Shown here piece after piece: positions 12,102-41,554 of a DNA stretch of 64,000 nucleotides. Position 1 is the first letter of the stretch. Each line of letters opens with the position of its first letter. The translations under genes and the position numbers were made by a program. The stretch spans positions 16,209-80,208 of the forward strand of contig JAHILF010000040.1 in NCBI GenBank assembly GCA_018897105.1, in the 5' to 3' direction. The notes under the pieces are model-generated. The model was given only the letters and a program-made list of their open reading frames with translations. It did not search any database and was not told the origin of the DNA. This stretch comes from Pseudomonadota bacterium (GTDB lineage Bacteria > Desulfobacterota > Desulfobulbia > Desulfobulbales > SURF-16).

Positions 12102-13727
12102 ATGGACAGAATAGGCCAGAGCCTCAAAACAAACGTCAAAATCATGAAGACCCGGGTCACCAAATACGCGGTGTACGGGGTGATCATCGCCTTTGGCGCC
12201 ATTGTCACCGCCACCCTGCTCAACTGCTATCTGCAGTTCGGTGAAATAACGTCCGTCGGCATCCTGCAGGTGCAGAAAACCAACCCCACCCTGTGGATAC
12301 TCGATGCCATGCCGTTCATCTTCGCCTTCTGGGGCCAGTATGTCAGCTCCATCATGGCCTATGAGGCGACCACCATGGTCCTGGACCAGACCAATGAACT
12401 GCGCACTCAGACCGCAGCCCTGGAATACCAGGCCATGCATGATGCCACCCATGACCAGCTCACCGATCTGCCCAACCGGGTGCTGCTGCGGGACCGTCTG
12501 GAACAGGCCATCCATGTTGCCCTGCGGGAAGACAGGAAACTGGCCCTGTTCATCCTGGACCTGGACCGTTTCAAAGAGGTCAATGACACCCTGGGACATT
12601 ACAGCGGCGACCGGTTGCTGAAACATGTGGCCATGCGGCTCAGGGGGGTTATGCGCGGTTCGGACACCCTGTCGCGGCTCGGCGGCGATGAGTTCGCCAT
12701 TCTCCTGCCAATGATCAAGGAAAGCAGCGATGTGCACATCGTGCTCAAAAAAATCCAGAACGCCTTTCTCTCCCCCTTCATGCTCGAATCTCTCAAACTT
12801 GAAGTACAGGCCAGCATCGGCATAGCCGTCTTTCCTGACCACGGCAGGGATGTTGACACCATCATGCAGCGGGCGGATGTGGCGATGTACGCCGCCAAAC
12901 AGAACCAGCAGGGATCGACCATATACTCAACCGGTCTCGACAAACACAGTCCCCATCGCCTGACCCTGATGGGTGAACTGCGCCAGGCCATTGACAACGA
13001 CGAGCTGCTGCTGCACTTTCAGCCGAAAATCAACATCAATTCCAACATCGTCTGCGGAGTTGAGGCACTGGTGCGCTGGCAGCATCCCCAGCACGGCTTC
13101 ATGCCGCCGGACGAGTTTATTCCCCTGGCGGAACGCACCGGCCTGATCAAACCGCTTTCCATCTGGGTGCTGAAACACGCCATTGAGCAGGCGGTCACGT
13201 GGCACAGAGCGCATCTGAAACTGGGTATTGCCATCAACCTCAGCCCCTCCACCCTGCTGGATACGGAACTGCCGGACGTCATCACCGGCACCCTGGCCTC
13301 CTGCAGTCTGCCCCCACATTACATTACCTTTGAGATCACCGAGGGCTCCATTATCAAGGATCCGGAAAGGGCACTGGAGATTCTGACCCGGCTTGACAAA
13401 ATGGGCATCCGCATCTCCATCGACGATTTCGGCACCGGCTATTCCTCCCTGGCCTATCTCAAGAGAATGCCGGCCAGCGAGGTAAAAATAGACAAATCCT
13501 TTGTGCTTGACATGCTGGTCGATGAAAACGACGCGGCCATCGTGCAGGCAACCATTGATCTAGCCCACAACCTGGGCCTGAAGGTTGTGGCCGAAGGGGT
13601 GGAAAACAAAGAGACGGCCGAGCGCCTGAAGGAGCTTGGCTGTGATATCCTGCAGGGCTACTATTTCAGCAAACCCTTGGCGGCAGACAAATTCCTGGCC
13701 TGGCTCAGCGCCCTTTCACCCAACTGA
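12102..13727 (+). CDS. GGDEF-EAL protein
   Basis: HDQLTDLPNRVLLRDRL...RLGGDEFAILLP...GVEALVRWQHP...DDFGTGYSSLAYLKRMP...KIDKSFV...VAEGVE; hydrophobic N-terminus. Confidence 0.93.
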   Translation: MDRIGQSLKTNVKIMKTRVTKYAVYGVIIAFGAIVTATLLNCYLQFGEITSVGILQVQKTNPTLWILDAMPFIFAFWGQYVSSIMAYEATTMVLDQTNELRTQTAALEYQAMHDATHDQLTDLPNRVLLRDRLEQAIHVALREDRKLALFILDLDRFKEVNDTLGHYSGDRLLKHVAMRLRGVMRGSDTLSRLGGDEFAILLPMIKESSDVHIVLKKIQNAFLSPFMLESLKLEVQASIGIAVFPDHGRDVDTIMQRADVAMYAAKQNQQGSTIYSTGLDKHSPHRLTLMGELRQAIDNDELLLHFQPKININSNIVCGVEALVRWQHPQHGFMPPDEFIPLAERTGLIKPLSIWVLKHAIEQAVTWHRAHLKLGIAINLSPSTLLDTELPDVITGTLASCSLPPHYITFEITEGSIIKDPERALEILTRLDKMGIRISIDDFGTGYSSLAYLKRMPASEVKIDKSFVLDMLVDENDAAIVQATIDLAHNLGLKVVAEGVENKETAERLKELGCDILQGYYFSKPLAADKFLAWLSALSPN

Positions 13728-22237: not shown

Positions 22238-26631
<4,394 letters not shown>

Positions 26632-27397: not shown

Positions 27398-27475
27398 TTC
27401 GGACAAAGCCAAACCCATTGCAAGGTGGGGACGGAAAGCCACGGGGCTTTCAGAGCCAGCCGGGTCGCCATGATG
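27398..27475 (+). promoter_or_regulatory. GEMM-I (c-di-GMP-I) riboswitch-like aptamer, copy 1
   Basis: ggacaaagccAAACCCATTGCAAGGTGGGGACGGAAAGCCACGGGGCTTTCAGAGCCAGCCGGGTCGCC. Confidence 0.88.
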
Positions 27476-27490
27476 GTTACTCGGTTTTTT
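27458..27490 (+). terminator. Intrinsic terminator overlapping riboswitch 1
   Basis: CCGGGTCGCC atgat GGTTACTCGG TTTTTT. Confidence 0.75.
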
Positions 27491-27682
27491 GCGTTTTACA
27501 GGCTGCGTTACGAACTTGATGATATTCCTGGAATAATCCTCTCCGCAGCCTTGGTTTTCTATGGCAGTTACAGATTTTTGCCTTGCCGGAAATAAAAACT
27601 GGGGCACAGAAATGTCTTTATTTCTTTAAGAATAAGAAATGCTGTACGTCGGTCAAATGTAAAAATGAAAAGGGAGAGAAAA

Positions 27683-30274
27683 ATGAAAAGACTGTTGTCA
27701 ATTTCTGGAATTATCGTCTTTTTCGTCATGATCAGCTGCAAGCTGGTTTTGGCGGTTCCGCAAAGCATTAATTTCCAGGGCAAGCTAACCGACAGCGCTG
27801 AGTTGCCGTTAAACGGCACCTATAATATGCAATTCTTTCTCTGTGATGCCGCAAGCGGCGGCACCTGCTTTTGGAACGAAACCCAGGCCGTTACAATGAC
27901 AAACGGCATTTACGATGTCCAGTTGGGCAAGGATGTGGCCTTTCCGTCCGGCCTGTTTGCCACAGAGCTTTTTCTTGAAGTGCGAATCTATAATGTAAAC
28001 ACAACCACATGGGAGGTATTTGACCCCAGACAAAAGCTCACCTCAACCCCTTACGCCATGGTGACGGAGGATGCCCAAACCCTGTCGGGCTATGCGGCAA
28101 CCGATTTCGCCGAGGCGGGTCACGACCATGACGCAGTCTATGTCAATGAGGGCCAGCCGTTATCAATAACAGGGGCCATGCTGGTTGACGGCGCGGCCAT
28201 TGCCGAAATTCTCGACGATGACGGCGCGAGCTCGGGCCTTGACGCCGATCTGCTGGACGGGCTGCATGCCGGCTCTTTCCTGCAGGCAGCCGGCGATTTT
28301 GGCCGTTCCGGGGTTGCCGCCAATCTCTATGAGGGCACCGCAACGCTTACTTCCAGATACGTCAACGAGGGCCAGGCTTCCTCCATCTCCTCAGGCATGC
28401 TGGTAGACGGAGCCAGCCGGGCGGAGATCCTTGACGACGACGGCGCGGGATCAGGCCTTGACGCCGACCTGCTGGACGGCAATGATTCCAGCGCTTTTGC
28501 CCTCACCTCCCACTGGCATTCCTTTCTCAACGCCTCGGACGGTGCCCCGGCTAATGCCCTCTCCGTGGATGCTGACGGCGATGTGGGCATCGGCACCACC
28601 AGCCCGGGGTATCCGTTAACTGTTATGGGGGTAAACAGACCCTCCGCCGCCTGGCTTGAAAACGACGGCAACTACACCGGCACCACCTATGGTTTATACA
28701 TCAGATCACTTGACAACACCACCGGCGGCAGCAACTACCGTTACGGCATCCGATGCGAGACCTATAATGATTATCTTAGCTACGGCGCCTCTCTGGCTTC
28801 CTATGGCTCGGGCCCTTCAACTTCATACGGGCTTCACGGCTACGGCAGCAACTCCTATACAGACGGCACCGGCGGAGCGGCCATTGGCGGCTATCTGATC
28901 GGCATCTCAACCCTGGGAACGGCCTATGGCACCTATTCCACGTCCTACGCCAGCGGAACAGCCAGCACCAACACGGTCTATGGCTCATTCAACAACGCCT
29001 ACCATTACGGCACAGCCGGCCCGGTTTACGGCTCCTATTCACAGGTTACCGGCAGCAACACCGGTGACGCCTACGGCTACTACGCATCTTCCGTAAAAAG
29101 CAGCGCTGACACCGGGGGAACCGCCTATGGCGGCTATTTTATCGCCGATAACCACCGGAGTGGAGGCTACTCCTACGGTCTCTACAGCGAGGCCATCGGC
29201 ACCAATGGTCGGCGTTATGGACTCTACAACAAGGTCATCACCTCCGGGGCAGACGGCTATACCAATTACGGAGTCTATTCCCTGGTGCAAAATACCAATG
29301 GGGCCTCTGCGGTGGGCTATTACGCCCTAATCTACACCGACAGTAACACGAATTCCTATGGCGGTTATGTTGACATTGACACAGCCAGCACGGCAACAGG
29401 GTCTCTTTATGGATACAGGGCGTTTGTTGATCATTCCGGTAATGAAGGGTATGCCTATGGTGTTTATACGAGTGTCGCTGCCAGTAATACCTGGCCCACC
29501 TATGGCGGATCTTTTAATGCATCTAGCCTTTCAGGGGATACCTGCACCCTCTATGGCATCTATGCCAGTGTCGACTACCACACCTCCGGCTATAAATACG
29601 CCGGCTATTTCTCCAAATCCGGCGGCGGCAACTATGCCGGCTATTTCATTGGCAATGTTTATATCAGCGGCACCATGTCTGCCACCAGCAAGTCTTTTGT
29701 CCAGCCCCACCGGGATGATCCCACAAAAGAAATCGTCTATGTGTCCATGGAGAGCCCGGAAAATGTCATCTTTCTCCGGGGCAGCACCGAACTCGTCGAT
29801 GGCGAGGCGATTATCGACCTGCCGGAGGCCTGGCAACTGGCGGCGGCGAAAGACAGCCTGACAGTGACGGTGACCCCGGAGCAAGGCTGGGCCCCGCTTT
29901 ATGTGGCTGAAAAATCCGTTGATCAGGTCATCATCCGTTCGGCCGAAACTCGATACGGAGATGTAGCCTTCTCCTATCACATCAGCGCCCTGCGTCAGGG
30001 ATTTGAGGAACATGAGGCCATCCAGGATAACAGCCACTTCACCGCGGATAATGTCAGCGCCTGGGAGTTTGAAAACCGCTACATCGATGACACCCCGTCA
30101 AACAAGGCCATCAGGGAAATGCTCAAGGAGAACGGCATCATGACCGCCGAGGGTAAACTGAGTAAAGACATGGCGGCCAAGCTTGGCTGGCAAGTTATCG
30201 ATGATGATGAAGACCCAAGATACCGCAAAGAACACGGTTTGCCTGATCGTGAAGAGCAAATGAGACAGGATTAA
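27683..30274 (+). CDS. Large secreted YG-rich repeat protein
   Basis: Signal peptide; INFQGKLTDSAELPLNGTYNMQFFLCDA...NGIYDVQLG; DADLLDGLHAGSF motifs; many YGxY repeats; C-terminal domain shared with 38531-41122. Confidence 0.85.
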   Translation: MKRLLSISGIIVFFVMISCKLVLAVPQSINFQGKLTDSAELPLNGTYNMQFFLCDAASGGTCFWNETQAVTMTNGIYDVQLGKDVAFPSGLFATELFLEVRIYNVNTTTWEVFDPRQKLTSTPYAMVTEDAQTLSGYAATDFAEAGHDHDAVYVNEGQPLSITGAMLVDGAAIAEILDDDGASSGLDADLLDGLHAGSFLQAAGDFGRSGVAANLYEGTATLTSRYVNEGQASSISSGMLVDGASRAEILDDDGAGSGLDADLLDGNDSSAFALTSHWHSFLNASDGAPANALSVDADGDVGIGTTSPGYPLTVMGVNRPSAAWLENDGNYTGTTYGLYIRSLDNTTGGSNYRYGIRCETYNDYLSYGASLASYGSGPSTSYGLHGYGSNSYTDGTGGAAIGGYLIGISTLGTAYGTYSTSYASGTASTNTVYGSFNNAYHYGTAGPVYGSYSQVTGSNTGDAYGYYASSVKSSADTGGTAYGGYFIADNHRSGGYSYGLYSEAIGTNGRRYGLYNKVITSGADGYTNYGVYSLVQNTNGASAVGYYALIYTDSNTNSYGGYVDIDTASTATGSLYGYRAFVDHSGNEGYAYGVYTSVAASNTWPTYGGSFNASSLSGDTCTLYGIYASVDYHTSGYKYAGYFSKSGGGNYAGYFIGNVYISGTMSATSKSFVQPHRDDPTKEIVYVSMESPENVIFLRGSTELVDGEAIIDLPEAWQLAAAKDSLTVTVTPEQGWAPLYVAEKSVDQVIIRSAETRYGDVAFSYHISALRQGFEEHEAIQDNSHFTADNVSAWEFENRYIDDTPSNKAIREMLKENGIMTAEGKLSKDMAAKLGWQVIDDDEDPRYRKEHGLPDREEQMRQD

Positions 30275-30288
30275 AAAAGGAGGGAAAT

Positions 30289-30711
30289 ATGAAAAAGAAG
30301 AAAAAGAGGAGACAAGGCGTTTTCCAGATGCTGCTGGCAGGAGGACTGCTTTATCCTTCGCTGCTGCTTGCCGCCGGTTCAAGTACATCATTCAACCTTG
30401 ACACCTCGGTGATCTCCGGCGGAGGCGGCGGCATGACATCCGGCAGTTTTTCCAGCAATGCCACCATCGGACAACCGACACCGATTATGGATCAGGACGA
30501 TATCCCCGTGCCACCGGGGTCAACCAACTTTGCCAGTTACCCCGGCTACTGGTATACCGTGGATGGCGAGGCGGGATGTGCGGGTGTCGCCGCCTTTGCC
30601 CTGTGCTATGGCCTCAGCAGCGCTGATCCCGGTTATAACCGTGGCTGTGATTTTGACAAGGACAATGACATTGACGGCTCTGACCTGGCGGAATTGATGC
30701 TGAGCCTCTAA
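30289..30711 (+). CDS. Small secreted protein with dockerin-like C-terminus
   Basis: Signal peptide; SADPGYNRGCDFDKDNDIDGSDLAELMLSL. Confidence 0.75.
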   Translation: MKKKKKRRQGVFQMLLAGGLLYPSLLLAAGSSTSFNLDTSVISGGGGGMTSGSFSSNATIGQPTPIMDQDDIPVPPGSTNFASYPGYWYTVDGEAGCAGVAAFALCYGLSSADPGYNRGCDFDKDNDIDGSDLAELMLSL

Positions 30712-30778
30712 TAATGAAAAACTCTGCCCTGGTTGGGGGGATAAAGAGCCGGGACAGACAACATACTGGGAGAAAAAA

Positions 30779-32830
30779 ATGAATAAGAAAGCCACCCTTT
30801 CACCTATGTTTATATCGCTTTGCAGTGTCCTCATATTACTTTTTACCACCTCGGCCTGGGCCGTGTCGGACAGGATGAATTATCAGGGGAAACTGACCGA
30901 CTCCGGTGGTATCCCCTTAAACGGCACCTTTATGATGCGCTTTAACCTCTATGATGCGGAAAGCGGCGGCAGCCAGCTCTGGAATACGCCTACCGGTGAA
31001 ACTCATACCGCTGTCGAGGTTATTAACGGCATTTACAATATTGAACTGGGCTCGGTTGAACCGTTAACCAGCGATGTATTTTCCCTGGATAATGTGTGGC
31101 TGGCGGTGTCTATCTACAACCAAGATACGTCATCCTGGGAAACACTTTTGCCCCGGCAGCGGGTCACTTCCACCGCCTATTCTTTCCAATCGGCACAGGC
31201 GGCAGATGCCGACACCCTGGAAGGTATGACCTCGGCTGATTTTGCCCTGGTGGGCCATGATCATGACGCCGACTATGTCAATGAAGGGCAGAGCAACTCC
31301 ATCACCTCCGCCATGATCGTTAATGGCTCGATTCTGGCCAGCGACCTTGCAGACGGCGCCGCCCTAGCGGAAATCCTTGATGACGACGGCACAGGTTCAA
31401 CCCTTGATGCTGATTTCCTTGACGGCTATTCCGCCGGCTCCTTCACCCTGCTGACCCAGGATTACGGTCGCTATAAGATAGCGACAGATCTTTATGAGGG
31501 AGCCACTACCCTGTCCGACAAATACGTCAATGAAGGCCAGGCCAACTCCGTCACCGGCAGCATGATCGTCGACAGCACCATCACCGCCGCCGATCTTGCC
31601 GCAGACTCCGTCTATGCCAGTGAAATTGCCGCCAATGCGGTCGGGGCAAGCGAGATTGCTGCCAATGCGGTCGGTACCAGTGAAATCAACTTCTCCCTTG
31701 ACTATACCGGCAGCGATCTAAACGGCGGTCTGGTGGCGATGACCAACACGGCAGCCGGTTCGGCGAGCAACTATCCTGCCGCGCTCTATGGCGGCACCAA
31801 TGGAGCAGCAGGCTCCTATAATGTTTTCGGCGTCCTGGGCACCGCTCCGGCGCTCGGCTCCACCAATGAAGCCATGCTGCTGCTGCCTTATGCCCCCATC
31901 GCCGTTGGAGGGGCCGCCCAGGATGGTTATGGCGTGGTCGGCACCTCAACCAGTCACTACCATGCAGGCGTTTATGCCGAAAGCACCAGAGGCTATGGGA
32001 TCTATGGTAAACACACGGACCCTTCCTATACCGCCCCGGCTGTTTACGGCAAAAATGAAGGATCAGGCATCGGTATTCTCGGTGAATCTGCATCCGGCAC
32101 CAATGCAGGCGTTATGGGACGAACCAACTCCAGCACAGGCATCGGCGTCAGGGGCCAGGGGGCTGTTTCCACAAACTACGGCGAACTGGGGAAAAACGGT
32201 ATCGGCGTAGAGGCCCAGGGCAGCCTCTACGCCGGCAAATTCCTTGGTGACGTCATTGTCTATTACGGCGCCAATCGCGTCGCCCAGATGGATGTCTACG
32301 ATTACAGTCTGCACATGTATGATTCCACCGGCACCCAGACCATCGAGCTCGATTCCGATTATAACGGCAACGGCCGGGTGATAACCCAGGAATTACAGAT
32401 CACCGGCGGCAGCGATCTCTCCGAGCAGTTTGACGTCAATACCCTGGATTTTGAAATCCAGCCGGGCATGGTGGTCAGCATCGACCCGGACAAACCCGGC
32501 AAGCTCACAATCAGTTCAGAGCCCTATGACAACAAGGTGGCGGGAATCATCAGCGGAGCAGGAGGCATCAAAACAGGCATGATGATGGGCCAGAAAGGTA
32601 CCGAGGCAGACGGAGCACATCCCATTGCCTTAAGCGGCAGGGTTTACTGCTATGTCGATACCGCAAACGGCCCCGTTGAACCGGGTGACCTGTTGACCAC
32701 ATCCGCCACCCCCGGCTATGCCATGAAGGTTACCGATCACGGCAAGGCACAGGGAGCAATAATCGGTAAAGCCATGACTCCGTTGAAAGAAGGCCAGGGA
32801 CTTGTGCTTGCTCTTGTCACTTTGCAATAA
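30779..32830 (+). CDS. Large secreted protein sharing the INFQGKLTDS N-terminal domain
   Basis: MNYQGKLTDSGGIPLNGTFMMRFNLYDAESGGSQLW...NGIYNIELG; DADTLEGM/DADFLDGY motifs. Confidence 0.8.
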   Translation: MNKKATLSPMFISLCSVLILLFTTSAWAVSDRMNYQGKLTDSGGIPLNGTFMMRFNLYDAESGGSQLWNTPTGETHTAVEVINGIYNIELGSVEPLTSDVFSLDNVWLAVSIYNQDTSSWETLLPRQRVTSTAYSFQSAQAADADTLEGMTSADFALVGHDHDADYVNEGQSNSITSAMIVNGSILASDLADGAALAEILDDDGTGSTLDADFLDGYSAGSFTLLTQDYGRYKIATDLYEGATTLSDKYVNEGQANSVTGSMIVDSTITAADLAADSVYASEIAANAVGASEIAANAVGTSEINFSLDYTGSDLNGGLVAMTNTAAGSASNYPAALYGGTNGAAGSYNVFGVLGTAPALGSTNEAMLLLPYAPIAVGGAAQDGYGVVGTSTSHYHAGVYAESTRGYGIYGKHTDPSYTAPAVYGKNEGSGIGILGESASGTNAGVMGRTNSSTGIGVRGQGAVSTNYGELGKNGIGVEAQGSLYAGKFLGDVIVYYGANRVAQMDVYDYSLHMYDSTGTQTIELDSDYNGNGRVITQELQITGGSDLSEQFDVNTLDFEIQPGMVVSIDPDKPGKLTISSEPYDNKVAGIISGAGGIKTGMMMGQKGTEADGAHPIALSGRVYCYVDTANGPVEPGDLLTTSATPGYAMKVTDHGKAQGAIIGKAMTPLKEGQGLVLALVTLQ

Positions 32831-32841
32831 GGAGGCAGACC

Positions 32842-34470
32842 ATGAAAAAATTCATCTGCCAATTACTGGCAATTCCTCTTCTTTTATCACTTACTGCATG
32901 GTCGGGTTTTGCCGCAGAGGAATATGCGCCACAACTCTTTACCGAAGCAGCCGCGACCCATCAGGCAGAAAATGCCCAATTCAAGGCCGGCGTGGAAAAA
33001 AGGATGCGATACACCGGCATCGATTTCAGTCGTCTGCTGACCCCGGGGCAACTCAAAAAGGGTCAAGCCATCGATTTCACCTTGGCCCCCAAAGAAGGCC
33101 AGCCGCAGCAGATCACCAAATTTGAGCTGAAACTCTTTGACGATGTCAAATACATCCTGGTGCTTGAGCGGGCGGCGAACGAATCCCCTGACGGAACGAC
33201 CATTACCTGGTACGGCTCTCTGGAAGGCGAGATAGACAGCAAGGTCATCCTGGTCAGCTCCGACGGGGTCCTTTCCGGCAACATCACCCTGGCCGATGGT
33301 CAATCCTTCCAGATCAGATACCGGGGCAACGGCATCCACGTCATCCGGGAAATCGACCAGAGCAAATATGGGACCGAACTTGAACCGGTTGAGCAGCGAC
33401 TGCCGGATGATTTTGACCCAAACGAGGCAATTGATCAGCAGGACACATCCACCCCTTATGACACTGACGACGAGGACCCGGCAACTGATCCGTCCCAATA
33501 TGACGAAACCGGGGCCACCATTGATGTCATGGTTGTTTATACCCCTGCATCCCGGATTGCCAACGGTGGGACAGCAGGCATGAACACCCTGATCGACCTG
33601 GCGATGGCCGAAACAAACACCGGCTATGGCAACAGCAATGTGGTCCAGCGAGTCAACGTGGTGCATCGCCAGGAAGTGACCTACACGGAATCCACTGCGC
33701 CGAATTCGGAAAGCACCATTGTTTTCGATGATGCCCTGGATGCCCTAGAGGGAACGAGCGACGGGGAAATAGACAACGTTCATACCCTGAGGAACGATTA
33801 CGCGGCCGACATTGTTTCCCTCTTTGTCCATGATCCCGTCACCGGCTGGTGCGGCAAGAGCAATATCATGGGTACGGAATCCCATACCTTTGAAAACCAG
33901 GCCTTTAATGTGGTTGATTGGGACTGTGCCACCGGCTATTACTCTTTTGCCCATGAAATGGGGCATAACATGGGCTCCCGCCATGACCGCGCCCATGACA
34001 GCTCGGATGGCGTCTTTTCCTACAGCCACGGGTACCAGGATCCTGAAGGGGACTTCCGCACCATCATGGCGTACGACTGCCCTGGAGGCTGCGACCGCGT
34101 TAACCACTGGTCAAACGTTAACATTGACTATGTGGTAGGTGCGACAAACTACGGGCCCACCGGCGTTATCTACACCGCAACCAATTCCGCCGCCAACTGG
34201 CGCTCCTTGAACAACGTCCGGGACACGGTGGCCAACTGGCGGCCCCGCTGGATCTATGTCAACGGCAGCTATATAGGAACGGAGTGGGGCTTAAGCGCCA
34301 CCCCTTACAACACCATCAGCGAAGGGGTAAACCACATAGGCCAATTCGCCGAGGATCCGCGACTCTACATTGCCCCGGGCACCTATACCGGCGCCGGCAA
34401 TGAACCGATAACCATCTTAAAAGCGATGACTATTGCCCCCTGGGGAACCGGCTCCATAACTATTGAATAG
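32842..34470 (+). CDS. Secreted metzincin-type zinc metalloprotease
   Basis: HEMGHNMGSRHDR (HExxHxxGxxHD) and downstream TIMAY Met-turn; signal peptide. Confidence 0.88.
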   Translation: MKKFICQLLAIPLLLSLTAWSGFAAEEYAPQLFTEAAATHQAENAQFKAGVEKRMRYTGIDFSRLLTPGQLKKGQAIDFTLAPKEGQPQQITKFELKLFDDVKYILVLERAANESPDGTTITWYGSLEGEIDSKVILVSSDGVLSGNITLADGQSFQIRYRGNGIHVIREIDQSKYGTELEPVEQRLPDDFDPNEAIDQQDTSTPYDTDDEDPATDPSQYDETGATIDVMVVYTPASRIANGGTAGMNTLIDLAMAETNTGYGNSNVVQRVNVVHRQEVTYTESTAPNSESTIVFDDALDALEGTSDGEIDNVHTLRNDYAADIVSLFVHDPVTGWCGKSNIMGTESHTFENQAFNVVDWDCATGYYSFAHEMGHNMGSRHDRAHDSSDGVFSYSHGYQDPEGDFRTIMAYDCPGGCDRVNHWSNVNIDYVVGATNYGPTGVIYTATNSAANWRSLNNVRDTVANWRPRWIYVNGSYIGTEWGLSATPYNTISEGVNHIGQFAEDPRLYIAPGTYTGAGNEPITILKAMTIAPWGTGSITIE

Positions 34471-34545
34471 TGATCGGAGTTAACAAGGGAAATCCTTAAC
34501 CTTGGCGGTGTTGTCCGGTGCCAAGGTTAAGGTGATCATAACCCT

Positions 34546-34730
34546 TAGGGGCTCGGAAAATGCCAAAATACCATAACGCATCCCGTCTTCAGGCCATCTT
34601 TGGCCGCGGCCTCAATCGCAAAATCCTCGCCGGAGCACAGCTACGCCTGCGGTTTTGCTCAATCTGCGCAACCAAATCTGACCCAAATCCGGGCGCGATC
34701 CAGGTAAATTAACATTTTCCGAGTCCCTTA
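34546..34730 (-). repeat. Dispersed ~185 bp element, copy 2
   Basis: TAAGGGACTCGGAAAATG ... CATTTTCCGAGCCCCTAA in minus orientation; same core as 9171-9354. Confidence 0.85.
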
Positions 34731-37715
34731 ATTGCAACTGCTGTCCAATGCGGTAAAAAACGCATCATATGCTCCGACACAGGTAAAACCTGTACCCGAT
34801 ACAGACCCGCCCAGCTTGCTAGCTGCGATTTTTGCTGTTGAAGTGCTATCATTCAAAATACTGTTTGTCGCACCGCTCATGCTGGAGGTGTTGATCGTTG
34901 GCGAGGAATAATCATCGTTAAACACGCCTCGATTGATAGTTGTCCCCATTGAAGCGCTAGCTGTTACATTTGTCATTGCCGGAGAGGAATAGTTGCCGTT
35001 TATAACACCATAACAATAAGTCCCCCCGGTAGCTGTGGCGCTTACATTTCTCATTGCCGGCGAAGAGGAATAGTTAGACACGCCGAGATTGTGAGAGCCC
35101 CCGGAAGCCGTGGCGGTTACTCGCGTTATATCAGGCGAGGCACTGTCATTTCGCATAGCAATAGAATAATAGCTTCCTCCCTTGTTCTCTACTGCAAGAG
35201 CCCGTATCTCCGCATTGTCAGCTCCTGACACTGTGGCTGATGTTGCATCATACGAACCACTGCTGTGAGTAGATGTTATGGTCGTTGTATTCTCTCCACT
35301 TCCCTCTATGTCCACATATGACTGCATGGCAAGTCCATTATTGCCAAGATCGTAAATGCCGGCATCGAGCCTGATCGTATAGCGGTTTGTTGCTGAAGCT
35401 GCGCCAAGGCCGCTGATTTCATTGCTTACTGCAAGCAGTAGTATGCCGTTTTCCGTGTCACTGCCTGAAGCAGGAACAAAAAGCTGATTCCCTGTTATGA
35501 TGATGCCGTTACTTGATACGTTAACCATCACAGGTGAGGAGGCGGCGTTATTTCTTACGCCGTAACTGGAAGTCCCACCGTTAGCCCTGGCTGTTACATT
35601 TATCATTGCCGGAAAAGAGGAGGTGTTGTTCAACACGCCCGTATTATTGTCACTTCCCCCGGAAGCGGTGGTAATGACATTGGTCATTGCCGGCGAAGAG
35701 GAGTAATTTAACACGCCGTAATTATAGTTTGTTCCCCCGGAAGCCGTTACGGTTACATTGGTCATCTCAGGTGAGGACAACATGTTATATACGCCGTAAC
35801 TGTAGACCCCCCCGGAAGCGCTGGCCGACACATTGGTCATTACCGGAGAGGAGGAGGAGTTATACACTCCTAGATTGGCCTCGATTCCTCCAGAAGCGAC
35901 GGCGGTTACATTGGTTATATCAGGCGCGGCAAACTCATTGACAATTGCAATAGAATCTGAGCCTCCTCCTCCTCGGTTCTCTATCGTAAGAAACCGCATC
36001 TCCGCATTATCAGCTCCCGACACTGTGGCTAAAAATTCTAGCGGACCGCCGCTGTGAGTAGAGGTAATAGTCGTTGTATTTTCTCCGCTTCCCTCTATGT
36101 CTACATATGGTTGCATGGCAAGTCCATTATTACCAAGGTCGTAGATACCGGCATCGAGCCTGATCGTATAGCGGTTTGTTGCTGACGCTGCGCCAAGGCC
36201 GCTGATCTCATTGCTGACTGCAAGCAGAAGTGTGCCGTTATCCGCGTCACTGCCCGAAGCACGAACAAAAAGCTGATTCCCTGTTATGATAATACCGTTA
36301 CTGGATACAACAACCATCCGCGGCGAAGAGGAGAAGTTAGACACACCGTAACTTAAAGTTCCCCCGGAAGCGCTGGCGGTTACAAATGTCATCGCAGGAG
36401 AGGATAAGGTGGAGTTATACACGCCTCGATTGACCTTTCCCCCGGAAGCGTTCGCGGTTACATTGGTCATTGCCGGAGAGGAGGAGGAGTTATACACACC
36501 GGTAGAGTTCGTTCCTCCGGAAGCCCTGGCGCTTACATGTGTTATCTCGGGCGATACAGAGTCATTGAAAATTGCCAGGGAATTTGTACCCCCTCCCTGG
36601 TTCTCTACCGTGAGAAACCGTATCTCCGCATTATCAGCTCCCGACACTGTGGCTGAATTTGCAACAAAAACTGTGCTGTGAGTAGAGGTTATGGTCGTCG
36701 AATTCTCTCCGCTTCCCGCAATGTCCACATATGGTTGCATGGCAAGTCCGTTATTGCCAAGGTCAAAGATTCCCGGCATTAGCCGTATCAGGCAGGTGTT
36801 TGTTGCGTCTGGCGTGCCGCACCATGCCGCAAGGTCATTCATTGCATCCAGCGGACTTGTATAGTCTCCCCCGCTCTGCGCCACTATGGCCACCTTGCCG
36901 TATAATGAGCCGGCATGGGTATGTGACGAGGCGGCAAAGCCAGTCGAGTCCATGCCGTCGAGCAGATCCGCGTCCAGGTTCGAACCGGAACCATCGGCCG
37001 CCTTGATGGCGGCAACCGCCTCGGGATCGGCATACCTCGTATGGTGGGCTGATACCGCTGCCGCATGGCTTGCGATATCAGCATCGATCTCAACCGATTC
37101 ATCCAAGTCGGTAGCATTGAGGCCGTCCAAGGTGTCGGCATTACCCGCAGTGCCTGCATAATTGACAGTAATGTCGTCTGGAATCTGGGCATCAATCGCT
37201 GCATCGGTCAGGTCGGTAAAGCTTGTGGTCTTTACATGGTGGGCCGAGGCGTCCGTTTCATGGTTTGAAAAAATTAAGGCCGAAGTGAAGTCCGCCGCAT
37301 GGGAGCCGTCCAGGGTGTCGGCATCGCCCGACTTCATGGAAAAGGAGGTGGAGGTCAGCTGCTGGCGGGGGCTCAAGGTTTCCCAGATGGATGTGCCCGT
37401 GTTATAGATATTGACTTCGAGAAATAACGGCTCCGTATCGAACAGATCCACGGGAAAATCGCTTATCGCACCGAGCTGGAGATTGTAGATCCCTTCAATG
37501 ACCGTAACGCTTTGATCCTCGGTCCAGTGACAACTCCCGCCGGTTTCCGAGTCGCAGATATAAAAACGCATGTCATAGACGCCTTCAAGCGGGACGCCGC
37601 CTGAATCCGTCAGTTTGCCTTGAAAATTGATGATCTCCGGCACCGCCCACGCCGTTGCGCCGAAGAACAGCAGCATGACAAACACGCCCATGATTGTGAC
37701 AATCCGTTTCTTCAT
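34728..37715 (-). CDS. Large secreted repeat protein, probable beta-helix
   Basis: EIINFQGKLTDSGGVPLEGVYDMRFYICDSETGG; three tandem GIYDLGNNGLAMQPYVDIEGSGENTTTITSTHS... blocks with repeated SSSPAMTNVTA.ASGG. Confidence 0.85.
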   Translation of the reverse strand: MKKRIVTIMGVFVMLLFFGATAWAVPEIINFQGKLTDSGGVPLEGVYDMRFYICDSETGGSCHWTEDQSVTVIEGIYNLQLGAISDFPVDLFDTEPLFLEVNIYNTGTSIWETLSPRQQLTSTSFSMKSGDADTLDGSHAADFTSALIFSNHETDASAHHVKTTSFTDLTDAAIDAQIPDDITVNYAGTAGNADTLDGLNATDLDESVEIDADIASHAAAVSAHHTRYADPEAVAAIKAADGSGSNLDADLLDGMDSTGFAASSHTHAGSLYGKVAIVAQSGGDYTSPLDAMNDLAAWCGTPDATNTCLIRLMPGIFDLGNNGLAMQPYVDIAGSGENSTTITSTHSTVFVANSATVSGADNAEIRFLTVENQGGGTNSLAIFNDSVSPEITHVSARASGGTNSTGVYNSSSSPAMTNVTANASGGKVNRGVYNSTLSSPAMTFVTASASGGTLSYGVSNFSSSPRMVVVSSNGIIITGNQLFVRASGSDADNGTLLLAVSNEISGLGAASATNRYTIRLDAGIYDLGNNGLAMQPYVDIEGSGENTTTITSTHSGGPLEFLATVSGADNAEMRFLTIENRGGGGSDSIAIVNEFAAPDITNVTAVASGGIEANLGVYNSSSSPVMTNVSASASGGVYSYGVYNMLSSPEMTNVTVTASGGTNYNYGVLNYSSSPAMTNVITTASGGSDNNTGVLNNTSSFPAMINVTARANGGTSSYGVRNNAASSPVMVNVSSNGIIITGNQLFVPASGSDTENGILLLAVSNEISGLGAASATNRYTIRLDAGIYDLGNNGLAMQSYVDIEGSGENTTTITSTHSSGSYDATSATVSGADNAEIRALAVENKGGSYYSIAMRNDSASPDITRVTATASGGSHNLGVSNYSSSPAMRNVSATATGGTYCYGVINGNYSSPAMTNVTASASMGTTINRGVFNDDYSSPTINTSSMSGATNSILNDSTSTAKIAASKLGGSVSGTGFTCVGAYDAFFTALDSSCN

Positions 37716-37831
37716 GTTTCTCCCTCCCTTATGTCTGCGGCAAGAGCATTGCATTGAGAAATTGGCACAGGGGGACTCAGTACCCGGATAAAGCCTATTT
37801 TTTCGTTGTTAATTTTTTTTGGGCACCTCAC

Positions 37832-37872
37832 AAAAAAAGCCGGGTTACCATAAGTTGGCAACCCGGCTAACT
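37832..37872 (-). terminator. Intrinsic terminator overlapping riboswitch 3
   Basis: minus strand AGCCGGGTTGCC aacttat GGTAACCCGGCT TTTTTT. Confidence 0.85.
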
Positions 37873-37928
37873 TTAAAAAGCCCCGTGGCTTTCCGTCCCC
37901 ACCTTCCAATGGGTTTGGCTTTATTTTT
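37855..37928 (-). promoter_or_regulatory. GEMM-I (c-di-GMP-I) riboswitch-like aptamer, copy 3
   Basis: minus strand aaagccAAACCCATTGGAAGGTGGGGACGGAAAGCCACGGGGCTTTTTAAAGTTAGCCGGGTTGCC. Confidence 0.88.
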
Positions 37929-38239
37929 TTGAAGCTGCCCGCTATAGATTTTCAAATAAAGGGCATTGCCACTGAAAATTATGAGCCAGAAATTATTTTT
38001 AAACCACAAAAGCCTAACTATTATAATAACATCTTGACCAAACGATCTTGCTTTAGTCAAGATGGCAAATTGTCGCGCAATCCATATGTTGGAAAAATTA
38101 TTATCAGAAAAAACACGTATGCGTCATTTTACCACATTTACTTGCAGCAACAGTATGGGTAAATTATCCTTTATACGTGTTAGGGTGGCCTCAGCATATT
38201 GGCTATCCTCTTAAATCTTTCAGTTAAGTTTTCAGTTAT

Positions 38240-38314
38240 TCGGACAAGGCCAAACCCATTGAGAAATGGGGACGGAAAGCCACGGGGCTTTCAGAGCTAG
38301 CCGGGTTGCCATGA
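38240..38314 (+). promoter_or_regulatory. GEMM-I (c-di-GMP-I) riboswitch-like aptamer, copy 2
   Basis: ggacaaggccAAACCCATTGAGAAATGGGGACGGAAAGCCACGGGGCTTTCAGAGCTAGCCGGGTTGCC. Confidence 0.88.
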
Positions 38315-38332
38315 TGGTGATCCGGCTTTTTT
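38298..38332 (+). terminator. Intrinsic terminator overlapping riboswitch 2
   Basis: GCCGGGTTGCC atgat GGTGATCCGGC TTTTTT. Confidence 0.8.
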
Positions 38333-38530: not shown

Positions 38531-41122
38531 ATGAGAAGATTATGGTCAATTACGGGAATTATCGTCTTTTCCGTCATGATCAGCTGCAAGCTGGTTTTGG
38601 CGGTTCCGCAAAACATTAATTTCCAGGGCAAGCTGACCGACAGCGCGGAGTTGCCATTAAACGGCACCTTTAACATGCAGTTCTTTCTCTGTGATGCCGT
38701 AACCGGGGGCACCTGCTTTTGGAACGAAACCCAGGCCGTTACAATGACAAACGGCATTTACGATGTCCAGTTGGGCAAGGATGTGGCCTTTCCGGCCGGC
38801 CTGTTTGCCACAGAGCTTTTTCTTGAAGTGCGAATCTATAATGTGAACACAACCACCTGGGAGATCCTTACCCCCCGACAAAAGCTGACCTCAACCCCTT
38901 ACGCCATGGTGACCGAGGATGCCCAAACCCTGTCAGGGTACGCGGCAATGGATTTTGCCGAGGTGGGACACGACCATGACGCCACCTATGTCAATGAAGG
39001 CCAGCCATTATCAGTCTCCCAAACCATGCTGGTTGACGGCGCGGCCCTTGTCGAAATTCTTGACGATGACGGTTCGGGCTCAGGCCTTGACGCCGATCTC
39101 CTTGACGGGCTGCATGCCGGCTCTTTCCTGCAGACAGCCGGCGACTTCGGCCGTTCCGGGGTGGCTGCCAACCTGTACGAGGGGAGCGCAACACTTACTT
39201 CCCGATACGTCAACGAGGGCCAGGCTTCCTCCATTACCTCAGCCATGCTGATCGACGGCGTCGCCCTGGCCGAGATCCTGGATGATGACGGCGCGGGCTC
39301 AGGCCTTGACGCCGATCGCCTTGACGGCAACCACGCAAGCGCCTTTGCCCCCACCTCCCACTGGCATTCCTTTCTCAACGCCTCGGACGGGGCCCCAACC
39401 AATGCCCTCTCTGTTGATGCTGACGGTGATGTGGGTATCGGCACCACCAGTCCGGGGTATCCGTTGACGGTTCTGGGAGCAAACAGATCCTCCGCCGCCT
39501 GGATTGGAAACGACGGTTATTACACCGGCACCACATCTGGTTTATATATCAACTCATATGATAACACCACCGGTGGCACCAACTACCGTTACGGCATTCA
39601 ATCCTATACTTCTAATGATAATATGGCCTATGGCGCCTATCTTTCTTCCAGTGGATCAGGCCCTGCACCTTCATATGGGCTATACAGCTACAGCATTAAC
39701 ACTTATACAGACGGCACTACTGGCACAGCCTATGGCGGCTATCTGACCGGTTACTCCTCCCTGGGAACAGCCTATGGTAACAATTCCCGGGCCGAAGCCA
39801 CTAACTCGGCCAGCACCGCAACTATCTATGGCTCATACAACTACGCCTATCATTTCGGCACAGGGGGCAATGTTTACGGCTCCTCTTCCAATGTTTACGG
39901 CAGTGACACCGGGAACGTTTACGGCAACTATGCGTCTTCAAAAAAATTCAACGCAGACACCGGGGGTGATGCCTATGGCGGTTACTATATCGCCGATAAC
40001 GACCGGAGTGGAGGCTCCTCATATGGTCTCTACAGCGAGGTTACCGGCGCCAATGGCACACGTTACGGACTTTATAACAAGGTCATAACCTCCGGGACCA
40101 ATTCCTATGCCAACTACGGCGTCTATTCCCAGGTGACAAACACCAATGGCGGTTCGGTTTACGGCTATTACGCCAATCTCGACACCGGCAGTTTCACAAA
40201 CGCCTATGGCGGTAACGTTGACATCGACACGAACACGACGGCAACGGGCACTCTATATGGTTACTTTACGAATCTCTCTCATGCCGGCATCTCCGGGGAT
40301 GTCCATGGCGTTGCTTCAGTTGTCTCTGCCAGTAACACCGGCTACACCTACGGTGGGAGTTTTGCTGCATACAGCTATACTGGTGACACCGGCAGACTCT
40401 ATGGCCTCTATTCCATCGTCGACAACGACACCTCCGGCAATAAATACGCCGGCTATTTCTTAAAAGACGGCGGCGGCAACTATGCCGGGTATTTCTCCGG
40501 CAATGTTTATATCAGCGGCACCATGTCGGCCACCAGCAAATCTTTTGTCCAGCCCCACCGGGATGATCCCACGAAAGAGGTCGTCTATGTGTCCATGGAG
40601 AGCCCGGAAAACGTCATCTTTCTTAGGGGCAGCACCGAACTCATGGATGGCGAGGCGATTATCGACCTGCCGGAGGCCTGGCAACAGGCAGCCACTGAAG
40701 AGAGTCTGACGGTGACCGTAACCCCCAAACTGGGATGGGCCCCGCTCTATGTGGCGGAAATATCCCTTGATCAGGTCATCGTCCGCTCGGCCGAAACCCG
40801 CTATGGCGATGTGGCCTTCTCCTATCATATCAGCGCCCTGCGCCAGGGTTTTGAGGAGCATGAGGCCATCCAGGAAAACAGCCACTTCACGGCGGATAAT
40901 GTCAGCGCCTGGGAGTTTGAAAACCGCTACAGCGATGACACCCCGACCAACAGGGCCATCAGGGAAATGCTCAAGGAAAACGGCATCATGACCGCCGATG
41001 GCAAATTGAGTAAAGACATGGCTGCGAAACTCGGCTGGAAGCTTATTGATGATGAGGAAGATCCACATTTCCGCAGAGAACACGGCCTGCCTGATCGTGA
41101 AGAGCAAATGATGCAGGATTAA
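38531..41122 (+). CDS. Large secreted YG-rich repeat protein, paralog of 27683-30274
   Basis: Near-identical N- and C-terminal domains, diverged YGxY repeat centre. Confidence 0.87.
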   Translation: MRRLWSITGIIVFSVMISCKLVLAVPQNINFQGKLTDSAELPLNGTFNMQFFLCDAVTGGTCFWNETQAVTMTNGIYDVQLGKDVAFPAGLFATELFLEVRIYNVNTTTWEILTPRQKLTSTPYAMVTEDAQTLSGYAAMDFAEVGHDHDATYVNEGQPLSVSQTMLVDGAALVEILDDDGSGSGLDADLLDGLHAGSFLQTAGDFGRSGVAANLYEGSATLTSRYVNEGQASSITSAMLIDGVALAEILDDDGAGSGLDADRLDGNHASAFAPTSHWHSFLNASDGAPTNALSVDADGDVGIGTTSPGYPLTVLGANRSSAAWIGNDGYYTGTTSGLYINSYDNTTGGTNYRYGIQSYTSNDNMAYGAYLSSSGSGPAPSYGLYSYSINTYTDGTTGTAYGGYLTGYSSLGTAYGNNSRAEATNSASTATIYGSYNYAYHFGTGGNVYGSSSNVYGSDTGNVYGNYASSKKFNADTGGDAYGGYYIADNDRSGGSSYGLYSEVTGANGTRYGLYNKVITSGTNSYANYGVYSQVTNTNGGSVYGYYANLDTGSFTNAYGGNVDIDTNTTATGTLYGYFTNLSHAGISGDVHGVASVVSASNTGYTYGGSFAAYSYTGDTGRLYGLYSIVDNDTSGNKYAGYFLKDGGGNYAGYFSGNVYISGTMSATSKSFVQPHRDDPTKEVVYVSMESPENVIFLRGSTELMDGEAIIDLPEAWQQAATEESLTVTVTPKLGWAPLYVAEISLDQVIVRSAETRYGDVAFSYHISALRQGFEEHEAIQENSHFTADNVSAWEFENRYSDDTPTNRAIREMLKENGIMTADGKLSKDMAAKLGWKLIDDEEDPHFRREHGLPDREEQMMQD

Positions 41123-41137
41123 TTACAGGGGGGAAAG

Positions 41138-41554
41138 ATGAAAAAGGAAAATATAAAAAGACAGGCCATTGTCCTGATGTTACTGGCAGGAGGGCTCCTG
41201 TGTCCCGCGCTGCTGCTTGCTGCCGCTTCAAGCACATCATTCAGCCTTGACACCTCTGTGGTCTCCGGTGGAGGAGGTGGTATGGCATCCGGCAGTTTTT
41301 CCAACAACGCCACCGTCGGGCAACCCACACCGATAATGGATCAGGATGATATCCCAGCCCCGCCACAATCAACCAGCTTTACCAATTCTCCAGGCTTCTG
41401 GTACACCATGGATGGCGCAGGATGTTCCGTCGCTGCTTTTGCTTCGTGCTTTGGGCTAATGAGCGCTGATCCTGGTTACAACCGGAGTTGTGATTTTGAC
41501 AAGGACAACGACATCGACGGCTCTGACCTGGCTGAACTTATTGCCTCTTACTGA
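41138..41554 (+). CDS. Small secreted dockerin-like protein, paralog of 30289-30711
   Basis: SADPGYNRSCDFDKDNDIDGSDLAELIASY. Confidence 0.75.
   Translation: MKKENIKRQAIVLMLLAGGLLCPALLLAAASSTSFSLDTSVVSGGGGGMASGSFSNNATVGQPTPIMDQDDIPAPPQSTSFTNSPGFWYTMDGAGCSVAAFASCFGLMSADPGYNRSCDFDKDNDIDGSDLAELIASY

What the first reader, a model, noticed from the sequence alone, without database searches (positions are those of the whole stretch)
27398..38332. Three c-di-GMP-I riboswitch leaders controlling one paralogous exoprotein regulon
Three leaders carry the GEMM-I hallmarks (AAACCCATTG..GGGGACGGAAAGCCACGGGGCTTT..AGCCGGGTTGCC). Each precedes a gene for a large secreted protein with the same N-terminal domain: 27683 (+), 37715 (-) and 38531 (+). 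In each, the aptamer 3' strand (GCCGGGTTGCC) also forms the 5' arm of a U-tract terminator, implying c-di-GMP-dependent read-through (ON switch). The first transcription unit also includes a dockerin-like protein, a fourth paralog and a metalloprotease. This looks like a c-di-GMP-controlled surface-assembly locus.
Basis: partly seen in the sequence, partly recalled or inferred. Interest (0 to 1): 0.82.

Follow-up and report, generated by a model that had tools for sequence, protein, structure and literature searches.

The report
Three c-di-GMP ON-riboswitches controlling fibre genes
Three copies of a well-known RNA switch that senses the bacterial signal c-di-GMP sit in front of duplicated genes for large secreted fibre-like proteins, so the cell probably makes these surface proteins when c-di-GMP is high; the mechanism is known, although this locus and a shared promoter-like element found upstream of many such switches are new observations.

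Summary
Rfam finds three c-di-GMP-I aptamers (27399-27473 +, 37929-37854 -, 38240-38314 +; E 1e-10 to 1e-14). Each is followed by a U-tract terminator whose 5' arm is the aptamer's own 3' strand, and each precedes a gene for a large secreted protein. All four copies of the shared N-terminal domain in this genome lie here. The best reading is a c-di-GMP ON switch working like the Geobacter pilM riboswitch, where aptamer and terminator exclude each other. Two aptamers score best as the 'GGC' variant but carry A at position 47 and G at position 20, so c-di-GMP is the likely ligand; no cGAMP-type GGDEF was recognised. The locus is part of a larger set: 20 aptamers genome-wide, mostly before secreted proteins, 16 with the same overlap architecture. 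A sister genome has the first leader and its four-gene unit; the two other leaders lie in about 8 kb present only here. The fibres are distant relatives of Bdellovibrio MAT fibres but below the family cut-off; 'dockerin-like' is weak. Triplicated GEMM-controlled surface genes are already reported in G. bemidjiensis. New here: a conserved promoter-like element upstream of about two thirds of these riboswitches in two genomes.

The parts
27399..27473 (+). c-di-GMP-I (GEMM-I) aptamer, leader 1
   Evidence: Rfam RF03167/RF01051 clan, 65.2 bits, E 3.7e-13; G20, C21-G46, A47
27459..27490 (+). intrinsic terminator whose 5' arm is the aptamer 3' strand (GCCGGGTCGCC)
27683..30274 (+). fibre-like exoprotein, 863 aa, MAT-like N-terminal domain
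30289..30711 (+). small secreted protein with one C-terminal DxDxDxDGxD loop ('dockerin-like'), 140 aa
   Evidence: no Pfam hit
30779..32830 (+). fourth N-domain paralogue, 683 aa
32842..34470 (+). secreted M12/reprolysin-like metalloprotease, 542 aa
   Evidence: Pfam PF13688 E 4e-16; distant NCBIfam Mep72 hit below cut-off
37854..37929 (-). c-di-GMP-I aptamer, leader 2
   Evidence: Rfam RF01051 65.6 bits, E 1.3e-10
37832..37868 (-). intrinsic terminator overlapping aptamer 3' strand, 13-pair stem plus T7
34728..37715 (-). fibre-like exoprotein with MAT-like N domain and repetitive body (beta-helix-like by inspection), 995 aa
38055..38078 (-). promoter-like element GYGCGACAATTTGCCNNNTTKACA (1 mismatch) upstream of leader 2
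   Evidence: chance expectation 0.01 in the window
38240..38314 (+). c-di-GMP-I aptamer, leader 3
   Evidence: Rfam RF03167/RF01051 clan, 68.9 bits, E 3.3e-14
38299..38332 (+). intrinsic terminator overlapping aptamer 3' strand, 13-pair stem plus T6
38531..41122 (+). fibre-like exoprotein, 863 aa, duplicate of 27683 (80% identical overall, 62-71% in the middle)
41138..41554 (+). duplicate of the small 'dockerin-like' protein, 138 aa

Best explanation
Each leader is a transcriptional ON riboswitch for c-di-GMP. Without ligand, the aptamer's 3' strand (GCCGGGTYGCC) pairs with a downstream arm just before a U-tract and transcription stops. With c-di-GMP, that strand is held in the aptamer, the terminator cannot form, and RNA polymerase reads into a gene for a secreted fibre-like protein. 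Leader 1 drives a likely four-gene unit (fibre, small secreted protein, second fibre, M12 protease); leader 3 drives a duplicate fibre plus small protein; leader 2 drives a related fibre on the other strand. High c-di-GMP would thus switch on several adhesin-like fibres together, as part of a set of 20 such switches. Shown here by sequence: aptamers, terminators, their overlap, gene order, duplication. Inferred: ligand, direction of switching, co-transcription, adhesive function.
For: Rfam hits at E 1e-10 to 1e-14. Binding-site letters G20 and A47 in all three, with pair 21-46 as C-G. Aptamer/terminator overlap in 16 of 20 genomic leaders, where 9 to 12 of the 12 aptamer-strand bases pair into the terminator stem; in L019 the altered aptamer strand GGCGAACTACC is matched by an altered arm GGTGGTTCGGCT. 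Predicted folds pass to the terminator as soon as its 3' arm is made. 34 GGDEF-domain matches in the genome; every selectivity residue that could be read is Asp, so c-di-GMP is probably made and no cGAMP-type (Ser) enzyme was recognised. Sister genome keeps leader 1 and its terminator nearly unchanged. A Geobacter riboswitch with mutually exclusive aptamer and terminator is an experimentally shown ON switch (PMC9262584).
Against: No binding or transcription data. The C21-G46 pair is flipped relative to the Rfam consensus G-C; it recurs across the order but its affinity is unknown. Rfam's best-scoring family for two leaders is the GGC variant. Most characterised class-I switches in C. difficile are OFF switches (PMC6200980). 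Leader 1's terminator is the weakest of the three, so it may leak.
Confidence: 0.85

Rival explanations
1. The leaders sense another cyclic dinucleotide (3',3'-cGAMP) or an unknown ligand, as GEMM-Ib or 'GGC' variants do.
For: Two leaders score best against RF03167, the GGC variant; one of the 20 genomic aptamers (L001) carries A20, the cGAMP signature.
Against: The three window leaders have G20 and A47; in Geobacter, A20 gives cGAMP and G20 gives c-di-GMP selectivity (PMC6456294). Every GGDEF selectivity residue that could be read is Asp rather than the Hypr Ser. The GGC consensus has G where these have A (alignments).
Confidence: 0.08
2. The switches are OFF switches: ligand promotes termination.
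For: Class-I switches in C. difficile act mostly as OFF switches (PMC6200980).
Against: Here the same bases are needed for the aptamer and for the terminator, so the bound aptamer should prevent the terminator; this matches the pilM ON design, not the Cd1 OFF design (PMC9262584).
Confidence: 0.05
3. Leaders 2 and 3 are passive copies carried along by duplication; only leader 1 is under selection.
For: Leader 3 belongs to a duplicated leader-fibre-small-protein cassette absent from the corresponding place in the sister genome.
Against: Leaders 2 and 3 have the stronger terminators (-24 and -20 against -14 kcal/mol) and intact aptamers, and leader 2 has the promoter-like element.
Confidence: 0.07

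Closest known systems
Geobacter pilM (Gmet_0970) GEMM-Ib riboswitch
   Same: GEMM-I aptamer; transcriptional ON switch; aptamer and terminator mutually exclusive because the terminator uses aptamer strands (PMC9262584)
   Different: pilM senses cGAMP (A20); these carry G20, and a flipped C21-G46 pair; targets are fibre genes
GEMM-controlled triplicated fibronectin-III surface genes of Geobacter bemidjiensis (Gbem_1796/1798/1799)
   Same: a riboswitch-controlled surface-protein gene triplicated, with GEMM riboswitches near the copies (PMC2996986)
   Different: different protein family; no M12 protease reported in the passage read
C. difficile c-di-GMP riboswitch control of adhesins and the ZmpI protease
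   Same: c-di-GMP riboswitches control surface adhesins and a secreted metalloprotease (PMC6200980)
   Different: there a class-I OFF switch controls the protease and class-II ON switches the adhesins; here fibre and protease would rise together from one class-I ON switch
Bdellovibrio mosaic adhesive trimer (MAT) fibres
   Same: about 120-residue beta-rich N-terminal domain after the signal peptide, repetitive body (PMC10769870)
   Different: below the NCBIfam cut-off (32-48 bits against 60), no S74 peptidase domain found; no c-di-GMP link is mentioned in the MAT paper

Membership tests
c-di-GMP-I riboswitch (RF01051 / GEMM-I) | covariance-model score above gathering threshold | tested here: met
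   65.1, 65.6 and 59.6 bits against RF01051 for the three leaders, threshold 35
c-di-GMP-I riboswitch (RF01051 / GEMM-I) | binding-site nucleotides G20, A47, C92 | tested here: met
   G20 and A47 read in all three; C of the closing CC present (alignments). Numbering mapped from memory of Vc2
c-di-GMP-I riboswitch (RF01051 / GEMM-I) | binds c-di-GMP | not testable with these tools
   needs in-line probing or ITC
c-di-GMP-I-GGC variant (RF03167) | G at position 47 (read from the model consensus GACGCGAA) | tested here: not met
   A at that position in all three, although two score above the RF03167 threshold
cGAMP riboswitch (GEMM-Ib) | A at position 20 | tested here: not met
   G20 in all three window leaders
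pilM-type ON switch | terminator 5' arm made of aptamer strand, mutually exclusive folds | tested here: met
pilM-type ON switch | ligand-dependent read-through | not testable with these tools
   needs transcription assay
Bdellovibrio MAT family | N-terminal domain above NF053851 cut-off (60 bits) | tested here: not met
   48.0, 32.5, 37.2, 44.3 bits; E 1e-12 to 7e-8 indicates distant homology only
Bdellovibrio MAT family | trimeric fibre | not testable with these tools
   full-length monomer model unusable, pLDDT 40
Dockerin (PF00404) | Pfam dockerin match | tested here: not met
   no Pfam match for 30289 and 41138 products; the only two genomic Dockerin_1 matches lie on other contigs and there is no cohesin

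The most novel reading that the evidence does not exclude
The c-di-GMP riboswitches of this lineage are one half of a composite control module: a conserved promoter-like element (GYGCGACAATTTGCC-N3-TTKACA, usually about 62 nt before the aptamer) bound by an unidentified regulator, followed by an ON riboswitch. The module would define a surface-protein regulon under two-step control, from which members with decayed aptamers also descend.
Probability: 0.4. Interest if true: 0.5.

Novelty: new member of a known kind. Interest (0 to 1): 0.36.

Why it matters
It adds a clear case of c-di-GMP probably switching on secreted fibre-like proteins through transcription-terminating riboswitches, with the switch duplicated together with its gene. 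The shared promoter-like element, if real, gives a concrete handle on how a large riboswitch regulon is coordinated, and the pairing of MAT-like fibres with c-di-GMP control is testable.

Tried and rejected
The GGC ligand variant was rejected for A47. Cohesin-dockerin assembly was rejected for lack of cohesins and of Pfam dockerin matches in the window. A lineage-wide link between the fibre N domain and riboswitches was rejected: in G016, G050 and the other G058 copies no Rfam riboswitch lies in the stretches fetched, though some of these stop at a contig end. A structure model of the whole fibre was unusable (pLDDT 40); the N-domain model (pLDDT 80) found no solved relative at E<=0.001, as reported for the MAT N domain. 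Five variant leaders without Rfam hits looked like a new RNA class, but the sister orthologue of one keeps only the first hairpin and the terminator, not the shared ATGACA core, so decay is more likely. The per-leader shuffle test of terminators was uninformative for short tails and is not used as evidence. PDB sequence searches with three of the proteins gave nothing.

Full report
What is there. Rfam's covariance models find three and only three RNA families in the 64-kb window, all c-di-GMP-I class riboswitch aptamers: 27399-27473 (+), 37929-37854 (-) and 38240-38314 (+), with E-values from 1.3e-10 to 3.3e-14. Each is followed about 140-220 nt downstream by a gene for a large protein with a signal-peptide-like start, at 27683 (+), 37715 (-) and 38531 (+).

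Which ligand. Two leaders score best against RF03167 (c-di-GMP-I-GGC). Its consensus has G where the canonical family has A47 (GACGCGAA against GACGCAAA); all three leaders read A there, and G at position 20. In Geobacter, an A-to-G change at position 20 moves selectivity from cGAMP to c-di-GMP (PMC6456294). The genome has 34 GGDEF-domain matches. The position that is serine in cGAMP-making Hypr enzymes (my mapping from memory onto the GHxxGD motif) is Asp wherever the motif could be read, though a few of the 30 loci examined did not show the motif. c-di-GMP is the most likely ligand. One odd feature is that the 21-46 pair is C-G instead of the consensus G-C in nearly all aptamers of this genome and in several others of the same order.

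How it switches. In 16 of the 20 aptamers found in the genome, 9 to 12 of the 12 nucleotides of the aptamer's 3' strand AGCCGGGTTGCC pair into a hairpin that ends at a run of T (L012). Changes are matched on the other arm: L019 has GGCGAACTACC facing GGTGGTTCGGCT, and L013 has GGGCTGCC facing GGCGTAGCCC. The exceptions are L001 and L002, whose terminators stand apart, and L006 and L020, which are weak. Folding the growing transcripts of the three window leaders shows the terminator taking over as soon as its 3' arm appears. Since the same bases are required for the aptamer and the terminator, ligand should prevent termination. This is the design shown by experiment for the Geobacter pilM riboswitch, an ON switch (PMC9262584). 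It is the reverse of most class-I switches in C. difficile (PMC6200980).

The proteins. The N-terminal domain (about 118 residues) occurs four times in the genome, all in this window. It is distantly related to the N domain of the Bdellovibrio mosaic adhesive trimer fibres: NCBIfam NF053851, E 1e-12 to 7e-8, but 32-48 bits against a cut-off of 60. Phage-protein profiles, including one weak tail-fibre profile, match parts of the body and C terminus. An AlphaFold model of the N domain (pLDDT 80) is a beta domain with no solved relative at E<=0.001, in line with the statement that the MAT N domain has no structural homologue in the PDB (PMC10769870). The full-length model is not usable. The protease at 32842 is M12/reprolysin-like. 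The small 'dockerin-like' proteins have a single acidic loop and no Pfam match, and the genome has no cohesin.

History of the locus. A sister MAG (L070, record JAHIVT010000112.1, 'Proteobacteria bacterium isolate MM_PC_MetaG.mb.92') has leader 1 with an almost identical terminator, the fibre (86% identical to the 27683 protein) and the small protein (94%) at a contig end. On another contig it has the second fibre (92%) and the protease (91%), followed directly by the homologue of the window's 42532-44250 gene. So the 34.5-42.5 kb stretch with leaders 2 and 3 is absent from the corresponding place in the sister, most simply because it was added in this lineage. The two fibre cassettes are 82-91% alike at their ends but 62-71% in the middle of the fibre, the pattern expected if the middle varies under selection; that reason is inference. 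In more distant genomes of the family the same modules (small protein plus fibre; fibre plus protease) occur without a riboswitch found in the stretches fetched, some of which end at a contig end.

The wider set. Of 16 other leaders whose first gene could be read, about 12 precede genes with signal-peptide-like starts (by eye). These include an Ig/cadherin/H-lectin protein, a beta-helix protein, an M36 protease fused to an outer-membrane barrel, and proteins ending in DxDxDGxxx loops. Riboswitches of this family occur in 36 of 58 sampled genomes of the order, up to 24 per genome.

A shared promoter-like element. Upstream of many of the aptamers lies GYGCGACAATTTGCC-N3-TTKACA, usually starting about 62 nt before the aptamer (one search shows nine aligned). 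It occurs 27 times in the genome within 3 mismatches, against none for the reversed control pattern, and 13 of the 27 precede Rfam aptamers. In the sister genome, which contributed nothing to the pattern, 8 of 15 leaders have it within 2 mismatches and a ninth with a one-base shift, while shuffled upstream sequences rarely came below 6 mismatches. In the window it lies at 38055-38078 (-), upstream of leader 2; leader 1 lacks it, and leader 3 has only a 3-mismatch copy of the 13-nt core. I infer a shared promoter with a regulator site; the regulator is unknown. Some of the other copies precede degenerate GEMM-like leaders that Rfam does not detect. One of the wider group, which lies just after a stop codon, keeps only the first hairpin and the terminator in its sister orthologue, so I read these as decayed aptamers and not as a new class.

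Novelty. Riboswitch class, ON mechanism and duplication of riboswitch-controlled surface genes are all known; G. bemidjiensis has GEMM riboswitches at a triplicated FN3 surface gene (PMC2996986), and G. sulfurreducens has 17 GEMM-I riboswitches (PMC6456294). This is a well-supported new member of a known kind. The conserved upstream element is the part I did not find described, but I did not search the literature for it specifically.

Noticed in passing
38055-38078 (-); L133-L159: Promoter-like element GYGCGACAATTTGCCNNNTTKACA: 27 genomic copies against 0 for the reversed control; 13 precede c-di-GMP aptamers, mostly at about -62 nt; also in 9 of 15 leaders of the sister genome, one of them with a one-base shift.
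   Followed up: partly
L146, L151, L155, L159, L176 (own genome); L161, L165 (sister): GEMM-like leaders with a first hairpin and the same terminator but no P3 or Rfam hit at E<=1 in the four scanned; probably decayed aptamers, and the shared ATGACA core is not kept in the one orthologue pair.
   Followed up: partly
L001 (G000:C137:315-406): One of the 20 aptamers carries A20, the cGAMP signature, before a gene with Ig/cadherin-like and H-lectin domains, although no Hypr-type GGDEF was recognised.
   Followed up: partly
22804-26622 (-): TIR-CHAT-NB-ARC/TPR protein, resembling STAND-type anti-phage defence or signalling proteins; TIR part matches PADLOC TIR models.
   Followed up: partly
L024:780-1640; L148:1710-2888; L029 second gene: TIR-domain proteins downstream of c-di-GMP riboswitches or of a sub-threshold relative (24.6 bits), an unexpected target class.
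   Followed up: partly
12102-13727 (+): GGDEF-EAL protein in the same window, a possible c-di-GMP enzyme.
   Followed up: no
genome-wide aptamers; L055, L061, L062, L064, L066, L067: C21-G46 pair flipped relative to the G-C consensus in nearly all aptamers here and in several other genomes of the order; effect on ligand affinity unknown.
   Followed up: partly
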